Below are positions 43,295 to 59,537 of a stretch of 64,000 bases of DNA, piece after piece (the stretch's first letter is position 1; every line of letters starts with the position of its first letter). The DNA comes from Bryobacteraceae bacterium (GTDB lineage: Bacteria > Acidobacteriota > Terriglobia > Bryobacterales > Bryobacteraceae). The position numbers and the translations under genes were made by a program. A model generated the notes under the pieces. The model searched no databases. It saw only the letters and a list, made by a program, of their open reading frames with translations, and was not told the DNA's origin. Location of the stretch: positions 3,782,001 through 3,846,000 of the forward strand of contig BPGE01000001.1 of NCBI GenBank assembly GCA_026002875.1, read 5' to 3'.

Positions 43295-45391
43295 TCAGTC
43301 GGGCAGCGCGAAGGCGTAATACGTGCTGCCCGGCGGATTGCCCCATTTCCCTCCGCCCGCGCCGATCACCACGTATTGCCTGCCGCCCACCATGTACGTA
43401 GCCGGCGTGGCGTTGCCTGCGGCGTCCATCTGGTATTCCCACAGCAGTTGCCCGGTGCGCTTGTCAAAAGCGCGGAACTTGCCGTCGGAGTTCGTCGCGC
43501 CGATGAACAGCAGGCCGCCCGCGGTCACCACCGAGCCGCCGTAGTTCTCGCTGCCCGTGTTCCTCAGGCCCTGCTTCACAAGCGCGGGAATTTCGCCCAG
43601 CGGAATGCGCCAGGCGTACTCGCCCGTGTTCAGGTCCAGTGCGTTCAGCGTGCCCCATGGGGGCGCGATGGCTGGATAGCCGTCCGGATCGGTGAAGCGC
43701 ACGTAGCCGTCGAGCCGGTATTTCAGGTCGATGGGCGAAGGCGTGCGCGGCGCATCGGCGACTTCCTTCTCTTCCCCCTGAAGAATGTAGGCGAGAATGG
43801 CGTCGATGCTCGAGGCGCCAAGATGCGCGTAGCCGGGCATGCGGCCGGCGCCCTTCAGAACCACGTCGCGAACCTGCTCCGCCCTCCGCCGCCCGGCGAG
43901 ATTGACGAGCGACGGAAACTCCGGCGGCGAGCCCGCGAGATTGTCGCGGTGACAGGAGGCGCACTGGCGCAGGTACAGCGTGCGGCCCGTGACGCGGCGG
44001 TCGTTCTTCCGCTCGACGAGTCTGATGATCCACGCCATCTCGTTCGAGTTGACATAGAAGAGGCCGGTCTCGGGATCCCACGTGGCGCCGCCCCACTCGC
44101 CGCCGCCGTCGAAACCCGGCAGAAGAATCGTGCCCTCGAGGCTGGGCGGCGTGAACTGCGGCCCGTTGCGGTACTCGCGCCAGCGGCGCAGAACGTCGGC
44201 GTGGGCCTCGGGAGTGCGGCGGGTGATGAGATCTTCAGAGAAATACTGCCGCGCGAAGGGCTCGGGCTTCAGCGGCAGCACCTGCCTCGGCGCCGTCCAT
44301 TCGCCGTCCACGTCGGTCTGCTGCACTTCGATTTCCTGATACGGGAACAGGCTCTCTCCGGTGACGCGGTCGAAGACCCAGACGTGGCCGGACTTCGTGA
44401 TCTGCGCCACGGCGTCGATCGTGCGGCCGTTGCGCTTCACCTGGACCAGCGTGGGCGCCGTGGGCAGATCGCGGTCCCAGAGGTCATGGCGGACGAACTG
44501 GAAATGCCACAGGCGGCGTCCTGAAGATGCCTCCAGAGCGATTAAACAATTTGCGAACAGATTGTCGCCATGGCGGTTGGCCCCGTAAAAGTCGTAGGTG
44601 GCCGAACCGGTCGGCGCGAACACGATGCCCCGCTGCTCGTCGAGCGCCAGCCCGCCCCAGGCGTTGGCGCCGCCGATGGACTGCCAGGCGTCCTTCGGCC
44701 ACGTCTCGTAGCCGAATTCGCCGGGGTGCGGAATCGTGTGAAAGATCCAGCGCAGTTTGCCGGTGCGCGCGTCGAAGGCGCGGAGATGGCCTGGCGCGGC
44801 GGGCAGCGACTCGCTCACCAGGCTCCCGAGGATCAGCAGATCCTTGTACACGACGCCGGGAGTCGTGACGGTCACCGTGAGGCTGGACGCGTCGCGGCCG
44901 AGATTCTCCCGCAGGTCGATGCGGCCGTTGTTTCCGAACGAGCGGACCGGCTGGCCCGTGCGCGCGTTCAGGCACCACAGCCACGGGCCGGCGGCGAAAT
45001 AGAGCCGGCGGTCGCTGCCGGACTCCCAGTAGTTGAAGCCGCGGTGGCGGAACTTGGCGGAGCCGGGGTCCTTGCCCTCGTGCGGATCGAAGCGCCAGAG
45101 CGGTTTTCCCGTGGCGGCGTCGAGAGCGATGACGTGCAGGCGCGGCGAGCTGACATACATCACGCCGTGGCGCACCAGCGGGTTGCACTGCATTTCGGTC
45201 TCTTTGCCGGCGCCGCCCGCGTCGAATTTCCAGGCCAGCGCGAGCCGCGAAACATTTCCTGTATGGATCTGTTTCAGCGGCGAGTACTTCGTGTTCGCGT
45301 AGCTGCCATGGTAGACCGGCCATTCCTGGCCGGCCAGAAGCAGCGGCATCATGAAAAGAACGCAGCGGCCCAGCATGGGGAATGCCGCCAT
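43295..45391 (-). CDS. PQQ-dependent dehydrogenase with inserted cytochrome c domain
   Basis: This 698-residue protein has a signal peptide ([13 protein letters not shown]). An eight-bladed quinoprotein propeller follows: [56 protein letters not shown] and [16 protein letters not shown] single-haem cytochrome c domain with CASCH (around residue 460) is inserted between propeller blades, with the Met ligand region GYAHLG downstream. It matches membrane or periplasmic glucose- or alcohol-type quinoprotein dehydrogenases, sending electrons to cytochromes. The ATG at 45391 falls inside a TATAAT box; the next ATG at 45376 may be the real start. Confidence 0.88.
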
Positions 45392-45397
45392 TATAGA
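45390..45397. promoter_or_regulatory. Overlapping divergent -10 elements (TATAAT minus, TATAGA plus)
   Basis: ATTATAGA holds TATAAT on the minus strand (45395-45390) and TATAGA on the plus strand (45392-45397), in the 14-bp gap region between the PQQ dehydrogenase and the lyase/receptor fusion gene. Predicted starts are near 45383 (minus) and 45404 (plus, two bases before the GTG). Confidence 0.5.
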
Positions 45398-45405
45398 CTG
45401 CGGGT

Positions 45406-48400
45406 GTGAGGGTCTGGCTGCTGGCGGCAGCATTGCTCGGCCTGGGAGCGCCGGGGCAGGAGCGGTTTCCAAAGCCCGATCCCGCGCGCGCATTCGCCGG
45501 GCTGAAGGTCTACCGCGATGGATCGCCGCTGCGCGCGCCGCGGGAAGACTGGGACGGCGCGCGCGGCCGCGTGCGCTCCGACGCGCGCTGGACGGCGTGG
45601 CTCGAAGAGCAGCAGTCCGCGTGCGATGCCTGGTTGGAGGCGTTCCCAACGGACCGCACGGACTGGATCGCCGGCTGGTGGCACGACTTTGTCGACGAGA
45701 AGACGGGCGCCTTTCTTGCATGGACGCCCAGGCCGCCGGCGGCCGTGTCCGAAAAAGTCTTCCGCGCCTGGGTCTTCGGCTTCCGCTCGCGGCACACGCA
45801 GCACATGGTGCAGGCGGCGCGCCTGGGCCGGCTCACCGGCGGCAACCGTTATACCGGCTGGGTCATCCGGCAGCTGAACTTCTACGCGGAGAACTACGAA
45901 AAATGGCCTCTGCAGACGGAGAAAAGCAGGTCGCGCTTGATGTACCAGAGCCTTGACGATGCCAATGTCCTCGTGCGGCTGGTGGAAGCGGCGCGGCTGG
46001 TCGAGGCGCAAGCCGCGCCGGAGCAGAGACGGCAATGGGCGGAAAAGCTCCTCCGCCCGATGGCGCTGCTGCTGGACGAGACATTCCAGCGCGTGCACAA
46101 CATTGCGGTATGGCAGCGCAGTGCCATGGGGATGGCGGCGCTGTATCTGAAAGACGCAGACCTGTGGCGGCGGGCGGTCGAGGCGCCGTACGGGCTGCGG
46201 CGGCAGATGGCGGACGGCGTGACCAGCGATTATCTGTGGATCGAGCAGTCGTTCAGTTACAACTCGTATGTCGTCTCCGCCGTGCTGCCGCTCTTCGTGC
46301 ACGCGGCCCTGGAAGGCAGGCTGAATGAGCTGCGGCGGGAGGCCGAGATCGCGCAGAACCTGATGCTGGCGCCCTCGGTGCTCCGGTTTCCGGACGGGCG
46401 GCTCCCGATGCCGGCGGACACTACGGGCGGATTTCAGCGCTGGCCGAACACGGCGCTGCTGGAAAGCACGCGGCGCGTCTTTCCCACCTGGATCGGACTG
46501 GAAGAGGCGCGGAAGCGGATGAGCTGGGACACGCTGCTCGATCCGCCGGAGTCGGATGCAGGGCAGCGCGGCGGCGCGCTTCCTGCCGTCTCGAGCCGGA
46601 ACCTCGAATCGAGCCGGATGGCCGTGCTCAAACATGACGACTGGCAATTGTTTTTCCACTACGGGCAGCTCGACCCTTCGCACGCGCAGGCGGAGGCGCT
46701 GAACTGGGAAGCCTCGTTCGGACTGGCCGACATCACGCACGACGCGGGCACTGTGGGCTACGGCTCGCCGCTGCACCGCGGCTTCTACACGCGCGGCCAC
46801 GCGCACAACGCCGTCCTGATCGACGGCGAGGGACAGCAGCGCTGGGCGCCCGGCGAACTTCTCGCCTTCGAGCCCGCCCGCGTTGCAGCGCGGCAGCCGG
46901 CATACCGCGACAATGCTTCCGTCGAGCGCGAGCTCCGCATTGCGGGCGGAGTCCTGGAGGACCGCGTGAAGGTGGAAACCTCGGACGGCCGCGAACACCG
47001 GATCGGGCTCGCCCTGCATCTGCAGGGACGCGTGCGGCTGCCGGACGGATTCCGCAACGATCCGGATTTCGGTCTCAGACACTGGGAGGGCGCCCGCACG
47101 GCGGAGTTCCCCCATGAAACCGCGCTGCTCGTGGATTATCCGGGGCTCGTGCTGGAAGTGAAAGTTGCGGCGGACGCGCCGCTGCGCGTCACGCATGCCT
47201 CCACGCCCGACATCCCGCCGCACCGGCGCGAATCCCTGTATTTCGAGCTCAGCGGACAGCGGGCTCAATTCGTGACCACCTTGCGCGTTGTGAAACAGGC
47301 GGCGGCGCCGCCCGGCCCGGCCGGGGAGGGCGAGCGCGAGGAAGAGCAGCGCCGGCGCGTGGCGCTGAACCTGCTCGGCGCGGCCGATACGGCAGGCGGC
47401 GAGAGCCGCCGCAACGAGAACATCCAGTTCAACCTGGTGGACAACAATGCGCTGAAAGAACTGAACGTGCGGCTGGGCGTGACGGCCACTCTGGTGCGCG
47501 AGTTCGAGCCGCAGCGCGGCTATTTCGGCGCCGAATTCGGCAATCCCCCCTCGGCGCCCCCGCACGCCGCGTTCGCCGGCGGCAAAGACTTCCATGGCGA
47601 GCTGCGCTGGGGACATCTGAACAGCGTGACGACGGCGAGGACGTTTTTCCAGGCAGGGGACGTGAAGCCCGCGCGGGAGAACGACGCCGGATTCCGCCTG
47701 GGCGGGCGCGCGTGGCGCGATGCCTGGTGGCAGACCAACGGAAGCCTGCGGCTGATCCGCGGGCAGGTGAACGGAAACGTCCTGGTGCCGCGCGCGGACG
47801 AGCGCACGCCGCTGGCGGCGGATCCGGCGGTGCGCGCGGTGGTGCGGCGGTTTCTGGATGCCTACCCGCTCGAGACGCCGAACCGCACGGACATCGATCC
47901 GCGGGCGCTGAACACCAATGCTCCTCAGAACATCGATCACCGCATCGGCGGCGCCCGGCTGGACATGAAGGGCGGCGCGCGGGATACGGTCGCGCTCGTC
48001 TACGACTTCACGTCGCAGGACGTGGACGCCTTTCAGCTCGTCGCCGGACAGAACCCGGATACGCACATCAAGAACCACCGCGCGAGGGCCACCTGGACGC
48101 GCACGCCAGACGCCCGCACGGCGATCGAAGCGACTGCGGCTTTCGACCGGACCGGCACGCTGCTTGTGCCCGAGCCGAACGCCGTGGGACCGATGGTGCT
48201 GATCGGAGGACTGGAGACGCTCGGACCCGTTGCGATTATCCCGCTCGACCGCGCAATGAACACGTACAGAGGCGCGGGCGCGTGGCGCAGGCAGGACGGC
48301 GCGCGGAGCTGGGTGGCGGGATTCGAGATCGCCCGCAGGCAGATGAACGGCGCGGAAACGGACGCGCACCGCGGGTTTTTCTCCTTCTGGAACGACTTTG

Positions 48401-49812
48401 GCCGCGACGCGATCACCAACCTGCGCCTGGGCACGCCCTCGCAGCACCTGATCAGCATCGGAGACATCTACCGCGGATTCCGGAACTGGGAAGCGGCGGC
48501 GTACGCGGGCGGACGGATTCGCTGGGGCGCAGATACGGACGTCACCTGGGGACTGCGCTGGCAGGCGGCCACGAGGCCAATCGAAGTGCACGGGCGCGAC
48601 ACGATCCCGTTTGACAGCGACCTCAACAACTGGGCGCCGTCGCTGGGCATGGCGCGGCGCCTGGGCGCGTGGGGCGTTCTGCGGGCCGCCGGCGGAGTGC
48701 AGTTCGGAGAGATTTTTCCGGTGACCTACTCGCAGGTGCGGTTCAGCCCGCCGGGAAACCTGAAGATCGCCGTCCCCGCGCCGGACCTGCTGCAGCCGCT
48801 GCGGGAAGGAGCCGACAGGGCGAAGCCGAACATCTATGCGCTCGATCGCGAACTGGCCACGCCCTACAGCTTTCAGTACAACGCGAGCTGGGAGCGCAGC
48901 CTTGGCAGCCTGGGGCGCCTCGAAGCAGGGTATGTCGGGAGCCGCTCGCACAAGCTGCTGATCATGTGGTACCGCAACCGCGGCCGGCCCGTGGAGGGCC
49001 TGCCGCTAACGACAGCCACGATCAACGACCGGCGTGCGGATCCGGCGATTGCGGACCTGCGGTGGGTTCTGAACGGCTCGCGCGGCTATTACGATGCCGG
49101 CCGTGTAACGTGGGTGCTGCCGCGCTGGCGGGGCGCGAGTTTCGAAACGGCCTACTGGTGGAGCAAGGCGATGGACCTCGGCAGCTCGTACACCAACACG
49201 GCCTACGACGCCGATTCGCGGCTGTCGCGCAGCCAGTGGGAGTTTGAAACGCACCGCGACATGAAGGGCCTGAGCGATTTCGACCAGCCGCATGCCTTCC
49301 TGTGGCGCGGGGCATGGCGCACGCCCTGGCGCAGGCTGCTGCTCCGGAACTGGGATCTGACCGGCGTGATGCTGCTCAAGCAGGGCACGCCGTTCACGGT
49401 GACCGCGGGCAGCGATGCGCCCGGCTATGGGAACGTGGACGGCAATGGCGGCGACCGGCCGCACCTGCTCGATCCGTCGATTCTCGGCCGCACGATCGGC
49501 GATCCCGACACGTCGCGCGAGCGGCTGCCGCGCAGCGCGTTTGCGTTTCAGCAGCCCGGCGAAATGCGCGGCAGCCTGGGGCGGAACACGTTCCGCCGCG
49601 GCCGGATCGCGAACCTGAACGCTTCACTCGGCAGGACGTGGACGTTCGACTCGACGAAACGGGTGATGCTGCGCGCCGAAAGCGTGAACCTGACCAACAC
49701 GCCGCAGTTCGCGCCGCCGGGCTTCGAGCTGGCGAACCCGAATTTTGGCGCAATCACCAACACGCTGAACGAGGGGCGGACGTTCCGCTTCCTCCTTCAG
49801 ATGGGATGGTGA
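45406..49812 (+). CDS. Polysaccharide-lyase/TonB-dependent-receptor-like fusion protein
   Basis: This single 1468-residue frame has a signal peptide ([15 protein letters not shown]). A heparinase II/III-like region (about 30-630) follows: a helical toroid with [18 protein letters not shown]-type helices, then a beta-sandwich with the family-like [16 protein letters not shown] near residue 462. A short Glu/Arg-rich hinge ([11 protein letters not shown]) leads into an Oar/TonB-receptor-like plug and barrel (about 650-1468; [35 protein letters not shown], and the barrel ending FRFLLQMGW). A catalytic domain joined to an outer-membrane transporter would put polymer cutting and uptake in one chain. 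No frameshift or start site breaks the frame. Confidence 0.85.
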
Positions 49813-52740: not shown

Positions 52741-54612
52741 ATGCGGCTCCCGTTTTTCGTACGCATCGCTGTCTGTCTGGCAGCTGCGATGGCGCAGGCG
52801 AACGCCCAGACAGCGCAGATCTGGCTGACCACAAGCGACCGGCAGGCGTTGATGGCGCCGCAGCCTGCGGCGGAATTCAAGCAGGCGAAGAAGGCTGACC
52901 TGCCGGTGGTGATCGTCGCCGATGGCACGGCGTATCAGACGATCGAGGGCTTCGGCGCATCCATGACGGACTCTGCTGCGTACCTGATCCGGCAACGCGT
53001 GCCGGCGGAGAAGCAGCAGGAGGTGATGGAGTGGCTGTTCGATTTCGAGAAGGGCATCGGCGTCAGCTTCCTGCGCAACCCGATGGGGGCGTCGGATCTG
53101 GCGCGGTTCCACTACTCGTACAACGATCTGCCGCCGGGGCAGCAGGACCCGAAGCTCGAGAGGTTCTCGATCGAGCATGACCGGCAGGACATTCTGCCGC
53201 TGCTCCGGCAGGCGCTGCGGATCAATCCGCTGATCCGCATGATGGGCAGCCCGTGGAGCGCGCCGGGGTGGATGAAGACGACGGGCTCGATGATTGGCGG
53301 GTCGCTGCGGAAGGAGGCGTATCCGGCGTTCGCGCTGTACTTCCGCAAGTATGTGGAAGCGTATGCGGCCGAGGGCGTGCCAGTTCACTACGTGTCCATG
53401 CAGAACGAGCCGCTGTATGTGCCGAAGGACTATCCGGGCATGTCGGTGACCGCAGCCGAGCAGACCGATTTTCTGAAGAACCATCTGCTGCCGGAGCTGG
53501 ACGCGGCGCGGCTTGACGTGAAAGTGCTCGTCTACGACCACAACTGGGACCGGCCGGATTATCCGATGCAGGTGCTTTCGGATGCGGTGATCGCCGGCTC
53601 GCCGCGCGTGGCGGGCACGGCGTGGCACTGGTATGGCGGCACGGCGGGGGCAATGACGCTGGTGCATCTGATGGACCCGAAGCGCGGGCAGTTTGTGACC
53701 GAAGCAAGCGGCGGCGCCTGGATCGAGGATCAGGTGAAGGCGGATTTCGAGGCCATCATCCACTCGATGCGGAACTACGCGCGGGCGTTCGTGAAATGGG
53801 GCCTGGCGCTGAACGAGAAGCGCGGGCCGAACGCGGGCGGTTGCGACACGTGCACGGGTCTGATCGAAGTGAACGAGCAGACGGGCGAGGCGCGGAAGAC
53901 GATCGACTACTTCACGCTGGGGCACTTCAGCAAGTTTGTGCGGCCCGGGGCGGTGCGGGTGTATTCGACGAACGCGCCGGGCGTGATCACGGCGGCGTTC
54001 GTCAACCGCAACCGCACGCGCGTTCTGGTGGCCTACAACGAAACACGCGAGGAGCGCCGGTTCCAGGTGGAATGGCGAGGGCGGTGGCTGGAGCTGGCGC
54101 TGCCGGCGCTGGGCGGAGTCACCGTGGTCTGGGATCAGGGCGTCGAGCCGCCCGCGCCGCAGGCCGGGCCGCGCGCGCCGCGCGAGAGAAAGCCGGAGTT
54201 CGTGTTTCCCGCCGCGGGCCAGCCGATTCTCGCATCGAACTACGCCAGCCTGCGCGAGCTGCGCACCGAGCCATGCACGGACACGGACGGCGGCTTCAAC
54301 CTCGGCTACGCGGCAGCAGGCAGCTGGGCGGAATTCCGTAACGTGGATTTCGGCGCGGGCGTGCGGTCCGTGGACGTGCGCGTGGCGAGCGCGGGCACGG
54401 GCGGGACGCTTGAGTTCCGGCTGGACTCGCCCAACGGCCCGCTGATCGCCCAGGCGCCGCTGCCGGTGACCGGCGGCTGGCAGACCTGGAGAACCGTCAG
54501 CGCCCCGGTGGCGGGCGCCAGCGGCGTGCGGGACCTGTATGTCGTGTTCACGCGGCAGAGCGGGACGGGCGGGCTGGGCAACCTGAACTGGTTCCGGTTC
54601 AGGGCCGAGTGA
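52741..54612 (+). CDS. Secreted GH30-family glycosidase with C-terminal carbohydrate-binding module
   Basis: This 623-residue protein has a signal peptide (RIAVCLAAAMAQANAQ). The GH30 barrel begins at GTAYQTIEGFGASMTDSAAY, with the acid/base Glu223 in MQNEPLYVP and the nucleophile Glu321 in FVTEASGG. A beta-sandwich with GVITAAFVNRNRTRVLVAYN follows, as is usual in the family. From about residue 490 there is a CBM6-like module (PILASNYASLRELRTEPC...WRTVSAPVAGASGVRDLYVVF). The family includes glucosylceramidases and beta-1,6-glucanases or xylanases; the exact substrate is open. It overlaps the convergent 84-residue gene by 14 bp. Confidence 0.94.
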   Translation: MRLPFFVRIAVCLAAAMAQANAQTAQIWLTTSDRQALMAPQPAAEFKQAKKADLPVVIVADGTAYQTIEGFGASMTDSAAYLIRQRVPAEKQQEVMEWLFDFEKGIGVSFLRNPMGASDLARFHYSYNDLPPGQQDPKLERFSIEHDRQDILPLLRQALRINPLIRMMGSPWSAPGWMKTTGSMIGGSLRKEAYPAFALYFRKYVEAYAAEGVPVHYVSMQNEPLYVPKDYPGMSVTAAEQTDFLKNHLLPELDAARLDVKVLVYDHNWDRPDYPMQVLSDAVIAGSPRVAGTAWHWYGGTAGAMTLVHLMDPKRGQFVTEASGGAWIEDQVKADFEAIIHSMRNYARAFVKWGLALNEKRGPNAGGCDTCTGLIEVNEQTGEARKTIDYFTLGHFSKFVRPGAVRVYSTNAPGVITAAFVNRNRTRVLVAYNETREERRFQVEWRGRWLELALPALGGVTVVWDQGVEPPAPQAGPRAPRERKPEFVFPAAGQPILASNYASLRELRTEPCTDTDGGFNLGYAAAGSWAEFRNVDFGAGVRSVDVRVASAGTGGTLEFRLDSPNGPLIAQAPLPVTGGWQTWRTVSAPVAGASGVRDLYVVFTRQSGTGGLGNLNWFRFRAE

Positions 54613-56002: not shown

Positions 56003-56114
56003 GAGAACGCTGTTGGGGGGCTTCTTCCTGCTGGCGCGGCGTCTGCCGGGTTTAACGATCCTTTACCGGCAGGGGTAAGCCGTGCGGCCTTCAGCAGCGT
56101 CTCAAGGGGTGGCA

Positions 56115-59100
56115 ATGAAAATCCTTCTCCTGCTTGCATTGATCCTGACTCCCTGTTTCGCCGGAGAAGACGCGCCGCCGGCGGCGGTGTCCGGGCGCGT
56201 CATGCACCGGGGCAAGCCTGTGCCGGGCGCCGTGGTGACGGTCCGCCAACAGGACAGACAATGGCAGACCGTGACCGATGAACAGGGGAGGTTCAGCGTC
56301 CCGGACGTTCCGGAAGGAGCCGTCGAAATCGAGGCGCGGCTGTTCGGGTTCGATCTGGCGCGGCGGACCGTCAGCGGCGCGGAGAGAAGCCATGTCGAGG
56401 TCGCGATGTCGATTCCGGCGCCGGCGGCTGCGTCGTCCAACGGCGGCGTCCTTTCCGGAATCAGCGGCGGCGAGACAATCGAGATTCAGAACAGCCGCAC
56501 GCTGGAGCCTGCGGCGCCGATGAACATCGACTCAAGCGACGCGAGCGAGTCGTTCCTGGTGCAGGGTTCGCTGAGCCGCGGCCTGCAGGAAGCGGGCCGC
56601 CCGGGGTTCTTCGAGTTCGGATTCGCGGCGCCGATGATGGCCGGGATGTTCGGGCCCGGAGGCATGGCGGGCGGGCCGTTCGGTCCGGAGGGCGGCGCGC
56701 CCGGCGGGGCGCCCGGCATGGCGGGACCGGCCCCGGGAAGCGCACCCGGCGGAGGCCCGGCGGGCCCTGCCGGCCCGGCGGGGTTCGGGGGCGCGCCCGG
56801 CGCACTGGGGGGCGGGCCCGGCATGGGCGGCGGCATGCGTGGAGGCGGCATGATGGGCGGCCCGCCCGGCGGCGGTCCCGGCATGCGCGCGGGCATGGGC
56901 CCGGGACTGGGACGCATGTCGCCCGAGGAGTTCCGCAACCTGCCTCCGGAGGAGCAGGAAAAGATCAAGCGCGAGCTGGCGGAGCGCTTCGGGGGCGCCC
57001 TGCAGCGGGAAGGGTTCGGCAACCGGGTGCAGCGCGCGCAACAACAGATCCGCGGCGGATTGTTTTTCAACCTGCGCGACGACGCCCTCGACGCCGCACC
57101 CTATGGCGTGAACGGGCGTCCCGTGGAAAAGCCGCAATACACGCAGACGCGCTTCGGCGGCTCGCTGGGCGGCCCGCTGAAGTTTGGCCGGATCTTCGGC
57201 GCGGACAACACGTTTTTCTTCGTGAACTACAATGCGGGCCGCGGCAACACGGTCTACAACGGCTTCGCGGTGCTGCCTGATGCGGCCGTCCGCACGGGCG
57301 ACTTCCGCGTGCTGGAGCCGCTGAAGCCGGCCGTGATCTTCGATCCGCTCTCCGGCGCGCCGTTCCCGGACAACCGCATCCCCGACGCGCGCATCAGCCC
57401 GATCGCGCGCGGGCTGCTCGAGTTCATTCCTCTGCCGAACCGCCCCGGCGCGGTGCAGAACTGGACGCTCTCGGCGGCGCAGCCGCAGTCGAACGACAAC
57501 CTGAACGTGCGGCTGAACCGCACGCTCAACCGCCGCAACCGGCTGGCGTTCGACCTGGCCTGGCAGCGGCGCTACTCGGAAAATATCCAGCTGTTCGGGT
57601 GGCGCGACCCGAACAGGGGGCGCGGCTGGAACACGGCCGTGAACTGGAGCCAGACGCTGGCCCCGCGCCTGATCCACAACATCCGCGTCCGTTACAACCG
57701 GAACTACAACGCGCTGATTCCTTACTTCGCCTATGGCCCGGACGTGGCGGGACAGCTGGGGATCGAAGGCGCCTCCCGCGATCCGGTCAACTTCGGTCCG
57801 CCGAACCTGAACTTCACCAACTACGGCGACCTGACAGACGGCAACCGGTCGCGGCGCATGGTGCACACCTGGAACTTCAGCGATGGCTGGACGATCGTGC
57901 GCCGGGCGCACTCGATCACGACGGGCTTCGAATTCACGCGGACGCAGCAGAACACGCTGCTCGACCCCAATGCGCGCGGCACGCTCTTCTTCGGCGGCCT
58001 TCTGACCAGCGGCCTTGACGCCGCCGGGCGGCCGCTGGCGGGCACAGGCAACGACTTCGCCGACTTCCTGCTCGGCTACGTGCAGCAGAGCAGCGTGCGG
58101 TTCGGAGAGCCGGACACTTACATGCGGCAGTCGGTGTTCAGCGTGTTCGTGCAGGACGAGTGGCGCGCGCGGCCGGGGCTGACGCTGAACGCGGGGCTCC
58201 GCTGGGACGCCTGGCTGCCGCTGACCGAAAAGTACGGGCGCATGGCGAACCTCGATCTCGCACCCGGCTGGACGGGCGCGGCGGTGGTGACGCCGGGCGG
58301 GCAGGGGCCGTGGATGGGCAGCGTGCCGGATGGACTGATCCGGTCCGATCTGAACAACGTGGCGCCGCGCTTCGGCCTCGCGTGGCGGCCGAGCCAGAAG
58401 CGGCGCACGATCGTGCGCCTGGGCTACAGCGTGTTTTACGACCTGGCCGTGTTCAACCGCATTGCGCAGCGGCTGGTCTACCAGCCGCCCTTCGCCACGG
58501 CGGCCACGTTCAACACGTCCACCGCCGCGCGGCTGACGCTCCGGCAGCCTTTCCGCGGGCCGCAGCAGCAGACGATCCTCAATTCGTTCGCCGTGAATCC
58601 GGGCTACCGCGCCCCCTACGCACAGACGTGGAATCTGAACATCCAGCAGGACGTGCGGGGCTACGTCATCGAACTGGGCTATCTCGGCACCAAGGGCACG
58701 GCGCTCGACATCCTGCGGATTCCGAACCGCGCCGCGCCCGGCTCGCCCATCGACAGCGAGCTGCGCCGCCCGATTCCCTACGCCACGGGCTTCACCTATG
58801 ACAGTCCCGAAGGCAGCTCGATCTTCCACTCCGGGCAGCTGCGCGTGGTGCGGCGCATGCGGCGCGGCGTCAGCTGGTCCGCGGTCTACACGTTCTCGAA
58901 ATCGATTGACAACGCCAGCTCGATCGGGGGCACGGGCAACCTTGTCGTGCAGGACGAAAACAACCTCCGCGCCGAACGCGGACTGTCGAACTTCGACGTC
59001 CGGCATCAGCTGCAGTTCAACGGCATGTTTGCGTCTCCGTTCGGCCCCACGGGCATCTGGCTGCGGCAGCGCAACAAATGGACGACGCTGCTGCGCGACT

Positions 59101-59537
59101 GGAACCTGAACCTGAACCTGCAGGCGAACTCCGGCCGTCCGCTGACGGCGCGCGTGCTGGGTTCGGTGGCCGATCCGGGCGGCAGCGGCGCCACGGGAAG
59201 CGCCCGCGCCGACGCGACGGGGCTGCCCGTGAAAAGCGGCTCGGGCTACTTCAACACGGCGGCGTTCACGGTGCCGCCCGCGGACCGCTACGGCAACGCG
59301 GGCCGCAACACGATTCCGGGGCCGGGCATGGTGGTGCTGAACGCGGGCTTCGGGCGCGCGTTCCAGCTGGGAGAAAGCGCGCGGCGCAGGCTCGACCTGC
59401 GGCTCGAGGCGCAGAACGTGCTCAACAAGGTGAACCTGACCAGCTACGGCACGGTGGTCAACGCCGCCAACTACGGCGAGCCTACTTCCGCCGCCGCCAT
59501 GCGCAGCGTCCAGATCACGGCGAGGTTCCAATTCTAG
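56115..59537 (+). CDS. Oar-like TonB-dependent outer-membrane receptor with collagen-like insert
   Basis: This 1140-residue protein has a signal peptide (KILLLLALILTPCFAG). A carboxypeptidase-regulatory domain (VSGRVMHRGKPVPGAVVTV...TDEQGRFSVPDVPEG) and a plug-like region follow. A Gly/Pro/Met-rich stretch lies at about 180-272 (units such as GGAPGGAPGMAGPAPG). Then comes a long barrel with typical acidobacterial blocks: YTQTRFGGSLGGPLKFG, FFFVNYNAGRG, IPLPNRPG, SVFVQDEWRARPGLTLNAGLRWD, and FDVRHQLQFNGMF. It ends SVQITARFQF, with terminal Phe. Such receptors import large substrates with TonB energy. The start has AAGGGG upstream. The VWFA-related gene follows 2 bp later. Confidence 0.92.
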   Translation: MKILLLLALILTPCFAGEDAPPAAVSGRVMHRGKPVPGAVVTVRQQDRQWQTVTDEQGRFSVPDVPEGAVEIEARLFGFDLARRTVSGAERSHVEVAMSIPAPAAASSNGGVLSGISGGETIEIQNSRTLEPAAPMNIDSSDASESFLVQGSLSRGLQEAGRPGFFEFGFAAPMMAGMFGPGGMAGGPFGPEGGAPGGAPGMAGPAPGSAPGGGPAGPAGPAGFGGAPGALGGGPGMGGGMRGGGMMGGPPGGGPGMRAGMGPGLGRMSPEEFRNLPPEEQEKIKRELAERFGGALQREGFGNRVQRAQQQIRGGLFFNLRDDALDAAPYGVNGRPVEKPQYTQTRFGGSLGGPLKFGRIFGADNTFFFVNYNAGRGNTVYNGFAVLPDAAVRTGDFRVLEPLKPAVIFDPLSGAPFPDNRIPDARISPIARGLLEFIPLPNRPGAVQNWTLSAAQPQSNDNLNVRLNRTLNRRNRLAFDLAWQRRYSENIQLFGWRDPNRGRGWNTAVNWSQTLAPRLIHNIRVRYNRNYNALIPYFAYGPDVAGQLGIEGASRDPVNFGPPNLNFTNYGDLTDGNRSRRMVHTWNFSDGWTIVRRAHSITTGFEFTRTQQNTLLDPNARGTLFFGGLLTSGLDAAGRPLAGTGNDFADFLLGYVQQSSVRFGEPDTYMRQSVFSVFVQDEWRARPGLTLNAGLRWDAWLPLTEKYGRMANLDLAPGWTGAAVVTPGGQGPWMGSVPDGLIRSDLNNVAPRFGLAWRPSQKRRTIVRLGYSVFYDLAVFNRIAQRLVYQPPFATAATFNTSTAARLTLRQPFRGPQQQTILNSFAVNPGYRAPYAQTWNLNIQQDVRGYVIELGYLGTKGTALDILRIPNRAAPGSPIDSELRRPIPYATGFTYDSPEGSSIFHSGQLRVVRRMRRGVSWSAVYTFSKSIDNASSIGGTGNLVVQDENNLRAERGLSNFDVRHQLQFNGMFASPFGPTGIWLRQRNKWTTLLRDWNLNLNLQANSGRPLTARVLGSVADPGGSGATGSARADATGLPVKSGSGYFNTAAFTVPPADRYGNAGRNTIPGPGMVVLNAGFGRAFQLGESARRRLDLRLEAQNVLNKVNLTSYGTVVNAANYGEPTSAAAMRSVQITARFQF

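What the first reader, a model, noticed from the sequence alone, without database searches (positions are those of the whole stretch)
45406..49812. Polysaccharide lyase fused in one frame to an outer-membrane receptor
Seen: one uninterrupted 1468-codon frame begins with a signal peptide and a heparinase II/III-like lyase region. It continues through a charged hinge into an Oar/TonB-receptor-like region with the usual barrel ending. Known: these two activities are normally separate proteins of polysaccharide-use loci. Inference: the lyase sits on the extracellular or periplasmic face of its own transporter, cutting and importing one polymer. The gene also lacks the usual N-terminal carboxypeptidase-regulatory domain, which the lyase replaces.
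Basis: partly seen in the sequence, partly recalled or inferred. Interest (0 to 1): 0.78.

Follow-up and report, generated by a model that had tools for sequence, protein, structure and literature searches.

The report
Sugar-cutting enzyme fused to membrane barrel
In a group of acidobacteria, one gene makes a single protein that joins a sugar-cutting enzyme to an outer-membrane channel, so import and first digestion of an acidic sugar chain may happen in one molecule; the fusion is real and kept by evolution, but its substrate and activity are untested.

Summary
Window 45406-49812 (+) is one open frame of 1468 codons: signal peptide, PL17-like lyase (about residues 20-628), short charged linker, Oar-type outer-membrane barrel. 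It is not an assembly join. Of 237 genomes held for the family, 17 carry the lyase: 9 fused, 8 as a separate gene. All 9 fused loci cross the junction in one frame; two of them are broken, inside the lyase. dN/dS is 0.13-0.28 for lyase and 0.13-0.23 for barrel. The fused barrels plus one unfused barrel at the same locus (G621) form one clade. The lyase precedes a shortened plug, so a periplasmic site is likely (inferred). Most likely function: import of a uronate oligosaccharide and its cleavage as it emerges. Substrate, activity and transport are untested, and two PL17 active-site positions differ. One other genome has a ThuA domain fused to the same barrel type.

The parts
45406..49812 (+). 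lyase-barrel fusion gene, 1468 aa, GTG start
   Evidence: relatives
45406..45462 (+). signal peptide, residues 1 to about 19, no lipobox Cys
   Evidence: by eye from the translation and the alignment of 14 lyases
45463..46590 (+). helical part of the lyase (about residues 20-395); H231-N232 at 46096-46101, Y285 at 46258-46260
   Evidence: profile match of positions 119-279 to solved PL17 lyases; helices in a partly confident model; invariant residues. Boundary approximate
46591..47289 (+). mainly beta part of the lyase (about residues 396-628); H426, Q428, E430, D446, H467
   Evidence: Pfam Hepar_II_III_C 398-541; strands in the later part of the model, which is of low confidence up to about residue 500
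47290..47355 (+). variable charged linker, residues 629-650
   Evidence: dN/dS 0.29-0.70 in 7 of 8 pairs, the eighth not computable; alignment A2
47356..47589 (+). shortened plug-like segment, residues 651-728
   Evidence: conserved in fused and unfused barrels; weak profile match to the later part of Oar plugs; Pfam Plug not matched
47578..49812 (+). Oar-type beta-barrel, residues 725-1468, ends in Trp
   Evidence: PF25183 725-1460; profile-profile match to full-length Oar proteins, probability 100
43295..45391 (-). head-to-head neighbour: quinoprotein dehydrogenase with cytochrome c domain, 14 bp between the start codons as read by eye
   Evidence: Pfam PQQ and Cytochrome_CBB3; same neighbour at 8 of 9 fused loci and at the unfused G621 locus

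Best explanation
One polypeptide is exported by its signal peptide. The C-terminal 740 residues form an Oar-type outer-membrane barrel with a shortened plug. The N-terminal 610 residues form a PL17-like, heparinase II/III-fold lyase that stays in the periplasm, tethered to the inner mouth of the barrel. Uronate-containing oligosaccharides entering through the barrel are cut by beta-elimination as they emerge. SHOWN: one frame, the domain identities, conservation, purifying selection on both halves, and one clade holding all fused barrels. INFERRED: periplasmic placement (as for other N-terminal extensions of TonB-dependent transporters), import direction, coupling to TonB, lyase activity. UNKNOWN: substrate. 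The position of PL17 His202 is Ile here, so a glucuronan-like or other uronate polymer is as likely as alginate.
For: Domains. Alginate lyases are the only PDB sequence matches (7 distinct sequences), and the ten best Foldseek matches of the lyase model are PL17. H231, N232, Y285 and H426 are the same in all 20 lyases compared: 7 fused, 9 separate, 4 distant. Fusion in 9 of the 17 lyase-bearing genomes among 237. dN/dS 0.13-0.28 and 0.13-0.23. Fused barrels plus G621 form a clade, 100/99. The genome has 13 TonB_C matches and one GH88 match. Oar needs its TonB box in M. xanthus (PMC6434023, passages).
Against: No Pfam Plug and no TonB box that I could recognise. The HxHxD motif of distant relatives reads HxQxE in all 16 close lyases, and the second PL17 neutraliser is Ile, so activity could be altered or lost. 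By eye I saw no polysaccharide-use locus around it (no search for SusD-like genes was made), only a GH30-CBM6 gene 2.9 kb downstream. The barrel model failed (pLDDT 31), so barrel, plug and topology are untested in 3D; the lyase model is only partly confident. Oar itself is implicated in secretion, so the direction could be outward. The lyase is patchy in genus g47: 4 of the 9 g47 genomes whose handles I saw, and G621 keeps the barrel without it.
Confidence: 0.55

Rival explanations
1. The barrel exports or displays the lyase: the N-terminal enzyme is a passenger moved through or held by an Oar-type channel to act outside the cell.
For: M. xanthus Oar is required for secretion of protease PopC (PMC6434023, passages and section 15). 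The plug is shortened.
Against: PopC is a separate protein, not a domain of Oar (PMC6434023, passages). A large domain tethered before the plug cannot easily pass its own barrel (inference). Closest relatives of the enzyme are oligo-lyases, for which a periplasmic place makes sense (recalled).
Confidence: 0.12
2. A made but proteolytically split pair: the linker is cut after export, giving a soluble periplasmic lyase and a separate barrel; the fusion only couples their expression.
For: The linker is short, variable and the least constrained part (dN/dS 0.29-0.70). Both halves exist as separate proteins in relatives.
Against: The joint has stayed in frame in all 9 fused loci across two genera, and no cleavage site is evident by eye.
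Confidence: 0.2
3. The lyase domain is a non-catalytic sugar-binding or gating cap for a barrel with a reduced plug, in the role of an N-terminal sensor domain.
For: HxQxE in place of HxHxD and Ile at the His202 position. Shortened plug. In G031 a different enzyme-like domain sits at the same place.
Against: The same substitutions are in the separate lyases, so they are not decay after fusion. H231, N232, Y285 and H426 are invariant. The unfused barrels scanned do without any recognised cap domain.
Confidence: 0.13

Closest known systems
PL17 alginate lyases (Alg17c 4NEI, AlyA3 7BJT, BoPL17 8BDD, AlgL17 9IRQ)
   Same: Closest solved sequences and folds; Asn201 and the Tyr258 motif are conserved
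   Different: 14-17% identity in the fold matches; His202 is Ile; HxQxE where distant relatives have HxHxD; NCBIfam oligoalginate lyase cut-off missed by far (44.5 against 1400 bits); fused to a barrel
PL35, PL33, PL15 and PL39 heparinase II/III-fold lyases
   Same: Foldseek ranks 11-26, together with a human dermatan sulfate epimerase; shared catalytic scheme (PMC12088678, passages)
   Different: Weaker matches than PL17; no barrel
Oar-type TonB-dependent transporters (CarboxypepD_reg, Plug, barrel)
   Same: Barrel PF25183 and a profile match over the whole barrel
   Different: No CarboxypepD_reg, Plug not detected; about 75 residues between linker and barrel match, against 133-136 between CarboxypepD_reg and barrel in L065, L075 and L096 and 212 in the window's own Oar; an enzyme at the N-terminus
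TonB-dependent transporters with N-terminal extensions (CarboxypepD_reg, STN, AMIN)
   Same: An extra domain before the plug
   Different: The five architectures counted among 34,893 proteins (PMC6434023, section 15 read) include no enzyme; that survey required PF00593 and PF07715, which this protein does not match

Membership tests
PL17 / heparinase II-III-fold lyase | Pfam Hepar_II_III_C above cut-off | tested here: met
   40.9 bits against 24; 14 of 14 lyases of A1 match at E up to 0.01
PL17 / heparinase II-III-fold lyase | helical toroid plus C-terminal beta-sheet domain | tested here: inconclusive
   Model of mean pLDDT 56.8, weak at model residues 300-484; ten best Foldseek matches are PL17 but TM 0.42-0.51 with rmsd over 10
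PL17 | Asn-His neutraliser pair (Asn201, His202 in Alg17c) | tested here: not met
   Asn kept (N232), His202 position is Ile in all 20 lyases compared
PL17 | catalytic acid Tyr258 | tested here: met
   Y285 in a conserved YxxY motif, invariant in 20 of 20; placed by motif with a one-residue shift, not by a residue-level alignment to 4NEI
PL17 | base Tyr450 proposed for Alg17c | not tested
   Y452 is invariant in 14 of 14, but I did not align it to Tyr450
PL17 / heparinase II-III-fold lyase | HxHxD base and metal motif | tested here: not met
   HxQxE in 16 of 16 close members, HxHxD in 4 of 4 distant ones; papers number the base differently
NCBIfam oligoalginate lyase NF042990 | score above curated cut-off | tested here: not met
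   44.5 bits against 1400
TonB-dependent transporter | outer-membrane beta-barrel domain | tested here: met
   PF25183 256.3 bits against 30; C-terminal Trp; PF00593 not listed for this protein at E up to 1
TonB-dependent transporter | Plug domain PF07715 | tested here: not met
   No match at E up to 1 for the whole chain or residues 636-737 alone; a weak match to the later part of Oar plugs remains (probability 86)
TonB-dependent transporter | TonB box | tested here: inconclusive
   No recognised motif; a conserved RVELNLLG-like stretch lies where one would be expected, by eye only
Oar subclass | N-terminal CarboxypepD_reg | tested here: not met
   Absent; present in all 4 full-length Oar proteins scanned
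TonB-dependent transporter | 22-stranded barrel | tested here: inconclusive
   Structure prediction failed, pLDDT 31.1
TonB-dependent transporter | TonB-dependent transport | not testable with these tools
   Host has 13 TonB_C matches, which is permissive only

The most novel reading that the evidence does not exclude
In Bryobacteraceae a subfamily of Oar-like barrels with a shortened plug acts as a platform that captures periplasmic sugar enzymes at its N-terminus (a PL17-like lyase in one clade, a ThuA domain in another genome), giving single-chain import-and-cut machines in which the enzyme also helps gate or pull substrate through a barrel that lacks a normal plug.
Probability: 0.25. Interest if true: 0.78.

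Novelty: new variant of a known kind. Interest (0 to 1): 0.56.

Why it matters
Polysaccharide uptake is normally split between separate proteins that must find each other. A natural one-chain fusion of an importer-type barrel and a lyase would give a defined 1:1 system in which to test whether import and cleavage are coupled. It also fixes a likely side of the membrane for the enzyme, gives a handle on the substrate of one of the many orphan Oar-type proteins of acidobacteria, and raises the question of how a barrel with a shortened plug is gated.

Tried and rejected
Assembly or sequencing error: rejected. Nine loci cross the junction in frame, two of them in single-contig genomes. The breaks seen are inside the lyase: G044 near residue 333 and one TAG in G620, before about lyase residue 134.

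Lyase replacing CarboxypepD_reg: rejected.

Lyase and barrel as old operon neighbours later joined: not supported. No barrel of this subfamily lies in the 8 loci examined around separate lyases, though four of these loci are only 5-14 kb (L062, L063, L066, L068). The neighbours of the ninth separate lyase (G598) were not examined. One full-length Oar at 22% identity lies near the G136 lyase.

More enzyme fusions on the same barrels: beyond the lyase clade and the ThuA fusion (L091) I looked at nine long open frames. Five (L089, L090, L092, L093, L094) showed no upstream Pfam domain above cut-off. Four (L140-L143) were judged by eye from the printed upstream residues as non-coding read-through or short leaders. 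The listings were cut, so further fusions may exist.

3D of the barrel: failed. Lyase tree: the fused lyases are one side of a branch but with weak support, 45/57, in 63% of bootstrap trees, so the single-origin argument rests on the barrel tree and the shared junction. In the barrel tree 0% of 200 bootstrap trees put the fused barrels alone on one side of a branch, yet the fork that joins G621 to the g47 fused barrels has support 90/96, below the starred level, and the starred branches alone would allow G621 to be an unfused sister; the shuffle control is uninformative there (500 of 500 as low). A clade test was not run. Rows left out of the lyase tree: G044 and G620 (broken). Partial rows kept in the barrel tree: L131, L133.

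No solved structure matched the barrel profile at E 0.01. Paper searches for such a fusion found none; the library is open-licence papers only, and I saw listings with starts of abstracts, not the papers.

Full report
CHECK OF THE OBSERVATION. The frame 45406-49812 (+) is open for 1468 codons. Pfam finds Hepar_II_III_C at 398-541 and OMP_b-brl_4 at 725-1460 over their cut-offs, with Alginate_lyase at 179-288 at the border (over cut-off when the lyase part is scanned alone). The only PDB sequence matches are alginate lyases (7 distinct sequences; PL17 by their titles). AlphaFold on the lyase part with six rows gave mean pLDDT 56.8, mostly helices first and strands last, with a poor stretch at model residues 300-484. 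Foldseek ranked ten PL17 chains first, E 1.1e-13 to 1.4e-11, but with TM 0.42-0.51, so the fold is supported, not proven.

IS THE FUSION REAL? In 237 genomes, all that are held for the family, 17 carry the lyase at E up to 1e-60. Nine are fused: five of the window's genus (g1: G000, G126, G144, G099, G044) and four of genus g47 (G047, G127, G623, G620). Eight have it as a separate gene of about 640 aa (five in g8, three in g12). In g47 the lyase is patchy: 4 of the 9 g47 genomes whose handles appear. At a looser 1e-30, 4 further genomes of 150 have distant relatives of 30-32% identity in frames of 564-667 aa. Outside the family, 396 genomes sampled across the phylum gave one more, G390, with a separate gene (its family holds only that genome). 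All nine fused loci read through the junction in one frame. Seven are intact end to end; G044 is broken near residue 333 and G620 has one TAG early in the lyase. Three are titled Bryobacteraceae or Bryobacterales; one is titled Arcobacter sp., although its genome is placed in genus g1 here. That scan used short exact peptides of the window and missed the separate lyases.

SELECTION. Nei-Gojobori estimates on 8 pairs of intact fused genes give dN/dS 0.13-0.28 for the lyase, 0.10-0.29 for the short plug and 0.13-0.23 for the barrel, against 0.29-0.70 for the 22-residue linker (7 of 8 pairs computable). Some synonymous distances are high (up to 1.44), so the ratios are rough; both halves are nevertheless clearly kept.

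HISTORY. In a tree of 42 barrels the nine fused barrels and one unfused barrel, G621 of g47, form a clade (support 100/99), and G621 lies beside the g47 fused barrels (90/96). G621 has its own signal peptide (by eye) directly before a linker like that of the fused proteins, and the same head-to-head quinoprotein gene, 71.5% identical. One fusion followed by loss of the lyase in G621 is the simplest account of that tree; an unfused sister line or two fusions at the same place are not excluded. The lyase tree agrees, but weakly (45/57). The quinoprotein neighbour is present at eight of the nine fused loci: G000, G126, G144, G099, G047, G127, G623 and G620. G044 had no match.

WHAT THE RECEPTOR HALF IS. 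It belongs to a subfamily of Oar-like barrels, mostly of about 830-920 aa in open frame, common in this family: 127 of 237 genomes match residues 646-780 at E up to 1e-20. Nine of 9 unfused members scanned have neither CarboxypepD_reg nor Plug in Pfam (L002, L078, L079; L089, L090, L092, L093, L094; L139). Full-length Oar proteins of the same family of bacteria carry CarboxypepD_reg in 4 of 4 scanned: the window's own at 56082-59537, L065, L075 and L096. Plug was listed for three of those four, over its cut-off only in L096, so a missing Pfam Plug alone is weak evidence. The distance is clearer: about 75 residues between linker and barrel match here, against 133-136 between CarboxypepD_reg and barrel in three of the four and 212 in the window's own (same calls). 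Profile comparison aligns this subfamily to full-length Oar from about residue 693 to the end; upstream of that only a weak match to the later part of the plug remains (probability 86). So the lyase was attached to an already shortened receptor and did not replace a domain there. No solved structure matched and the barrel model failed.

THE ACTIVE SITE. H231, N232, Y285 and H426 are identical in all 20 lyases compared. In PL17, Asn201 and His202 are proposed to neutralise the carboxylate, with Tyr258 as acid and Tyr450, or His415, as base (PMC4765187, passages; PMC12336832, passages has a Tyr base). PMC12088678 (passages) lists His200 with Asn201, and His413 as base. Here Asn201 is kept and the His202 position is Ile in all 20; the HxHxD motif is HxQxE in the 16 close members and HxHxD in the 4 distant ones. 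Depending on which paper is right, the general base could be kept (H426) or replaced (Q428). Mutation of the His202 equivalent in Smlt2602 lowered overall activity and brought poly-glucuronate activity (PMC4765187, passages). Hence the substrate may not be alginate. As the same changes are in the separate lyases, they are not decay after fusion.

MECHANISM. Best reading: periplasmic lyase tethered to the inner mouth of an importer-type barrel. Domain identity, conservation and selection are shown; location, direction, TonB coupling and activity are inferred. PL17 enzymes are mostly exolytic oligo-lyases that act late in alginate use (recalled; titles and starts of abstracts), which suits a place behind the outer membrane. 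The genome has TonB_C domains (13 matches), one GH88-type match and one other Hepar_II_III protein, a 1002-aa frame with an epimerase domain elsewhere in the genome.

A SECOND FUSION. In G031 a ThuA domain (PF06283, E 1.2e-14, residues 26-249) is in one frame with the same barrel subfamily (L091:2957-6331). Of the 19 other ThuA relatives fetched as loci (L100-L118), none showed a barrel match in the DNA held, mostly 1.5 kb on each side. This is one genome only.

LITERATURE. PMC6434023 (section 15 read) counts five N-terminal architectures among 34,893 TonB-dependent transporters, none with an enzyme, but it required PF00593 and PF07715, which this protein does not match. My searches found no report of such a fusion.

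VERDICT. A real, conserved, narrowly distributed fusion; a new variant of a known kind, with an untested but sensible function.

Noticed in passing
L091:2957-6331 (+), genome G031: A ThuA domain is fused in one frame before the same shortened-plug barrel subfamily, a second, different fusion.
   Followed up: partly
L139 (genome G621), barrel about 5051-2472 (-): Unfused barrel with its own signal peptide at the same locus, placed within the fused clade; a natural comparison with and without the lyase.
   Followed up: partly
window 45391-45406: The quinoprotein gene and the fusion gene start head to head with 14 bp between start codons; 14-25 bp in G144, G623 and G047 by first start codon. No room for ordinary promoters between them.
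   Followed up: no
window 43295-45391 (-): Quinoprotein dehydrogenase with a cytochrome c domain; conserved neighbour at 8 of 9 fused loci and at the unfused G621 locus; no NCBIfam model reaches its cut-off.
   Followed up: partly
window 52741-54612 (+): GH30 glycosidase with a CBM6 module, 2.9 kb downstream; relatives lie near the fusion in G126 and G144.
   Followed up: no
L082 (contig DYJN01000005.1): Record titled Arcobacter sp., but its contig is that of G044, placed in the window's genus; probably a mislabelled bin.
   Followed up: no
window 56082-59537 (+): A full-length Oar-type protein with CarboxypepD_reg and a long Gly/Pro/Met-rich stretch where the plug is expected.
   Followed up: no
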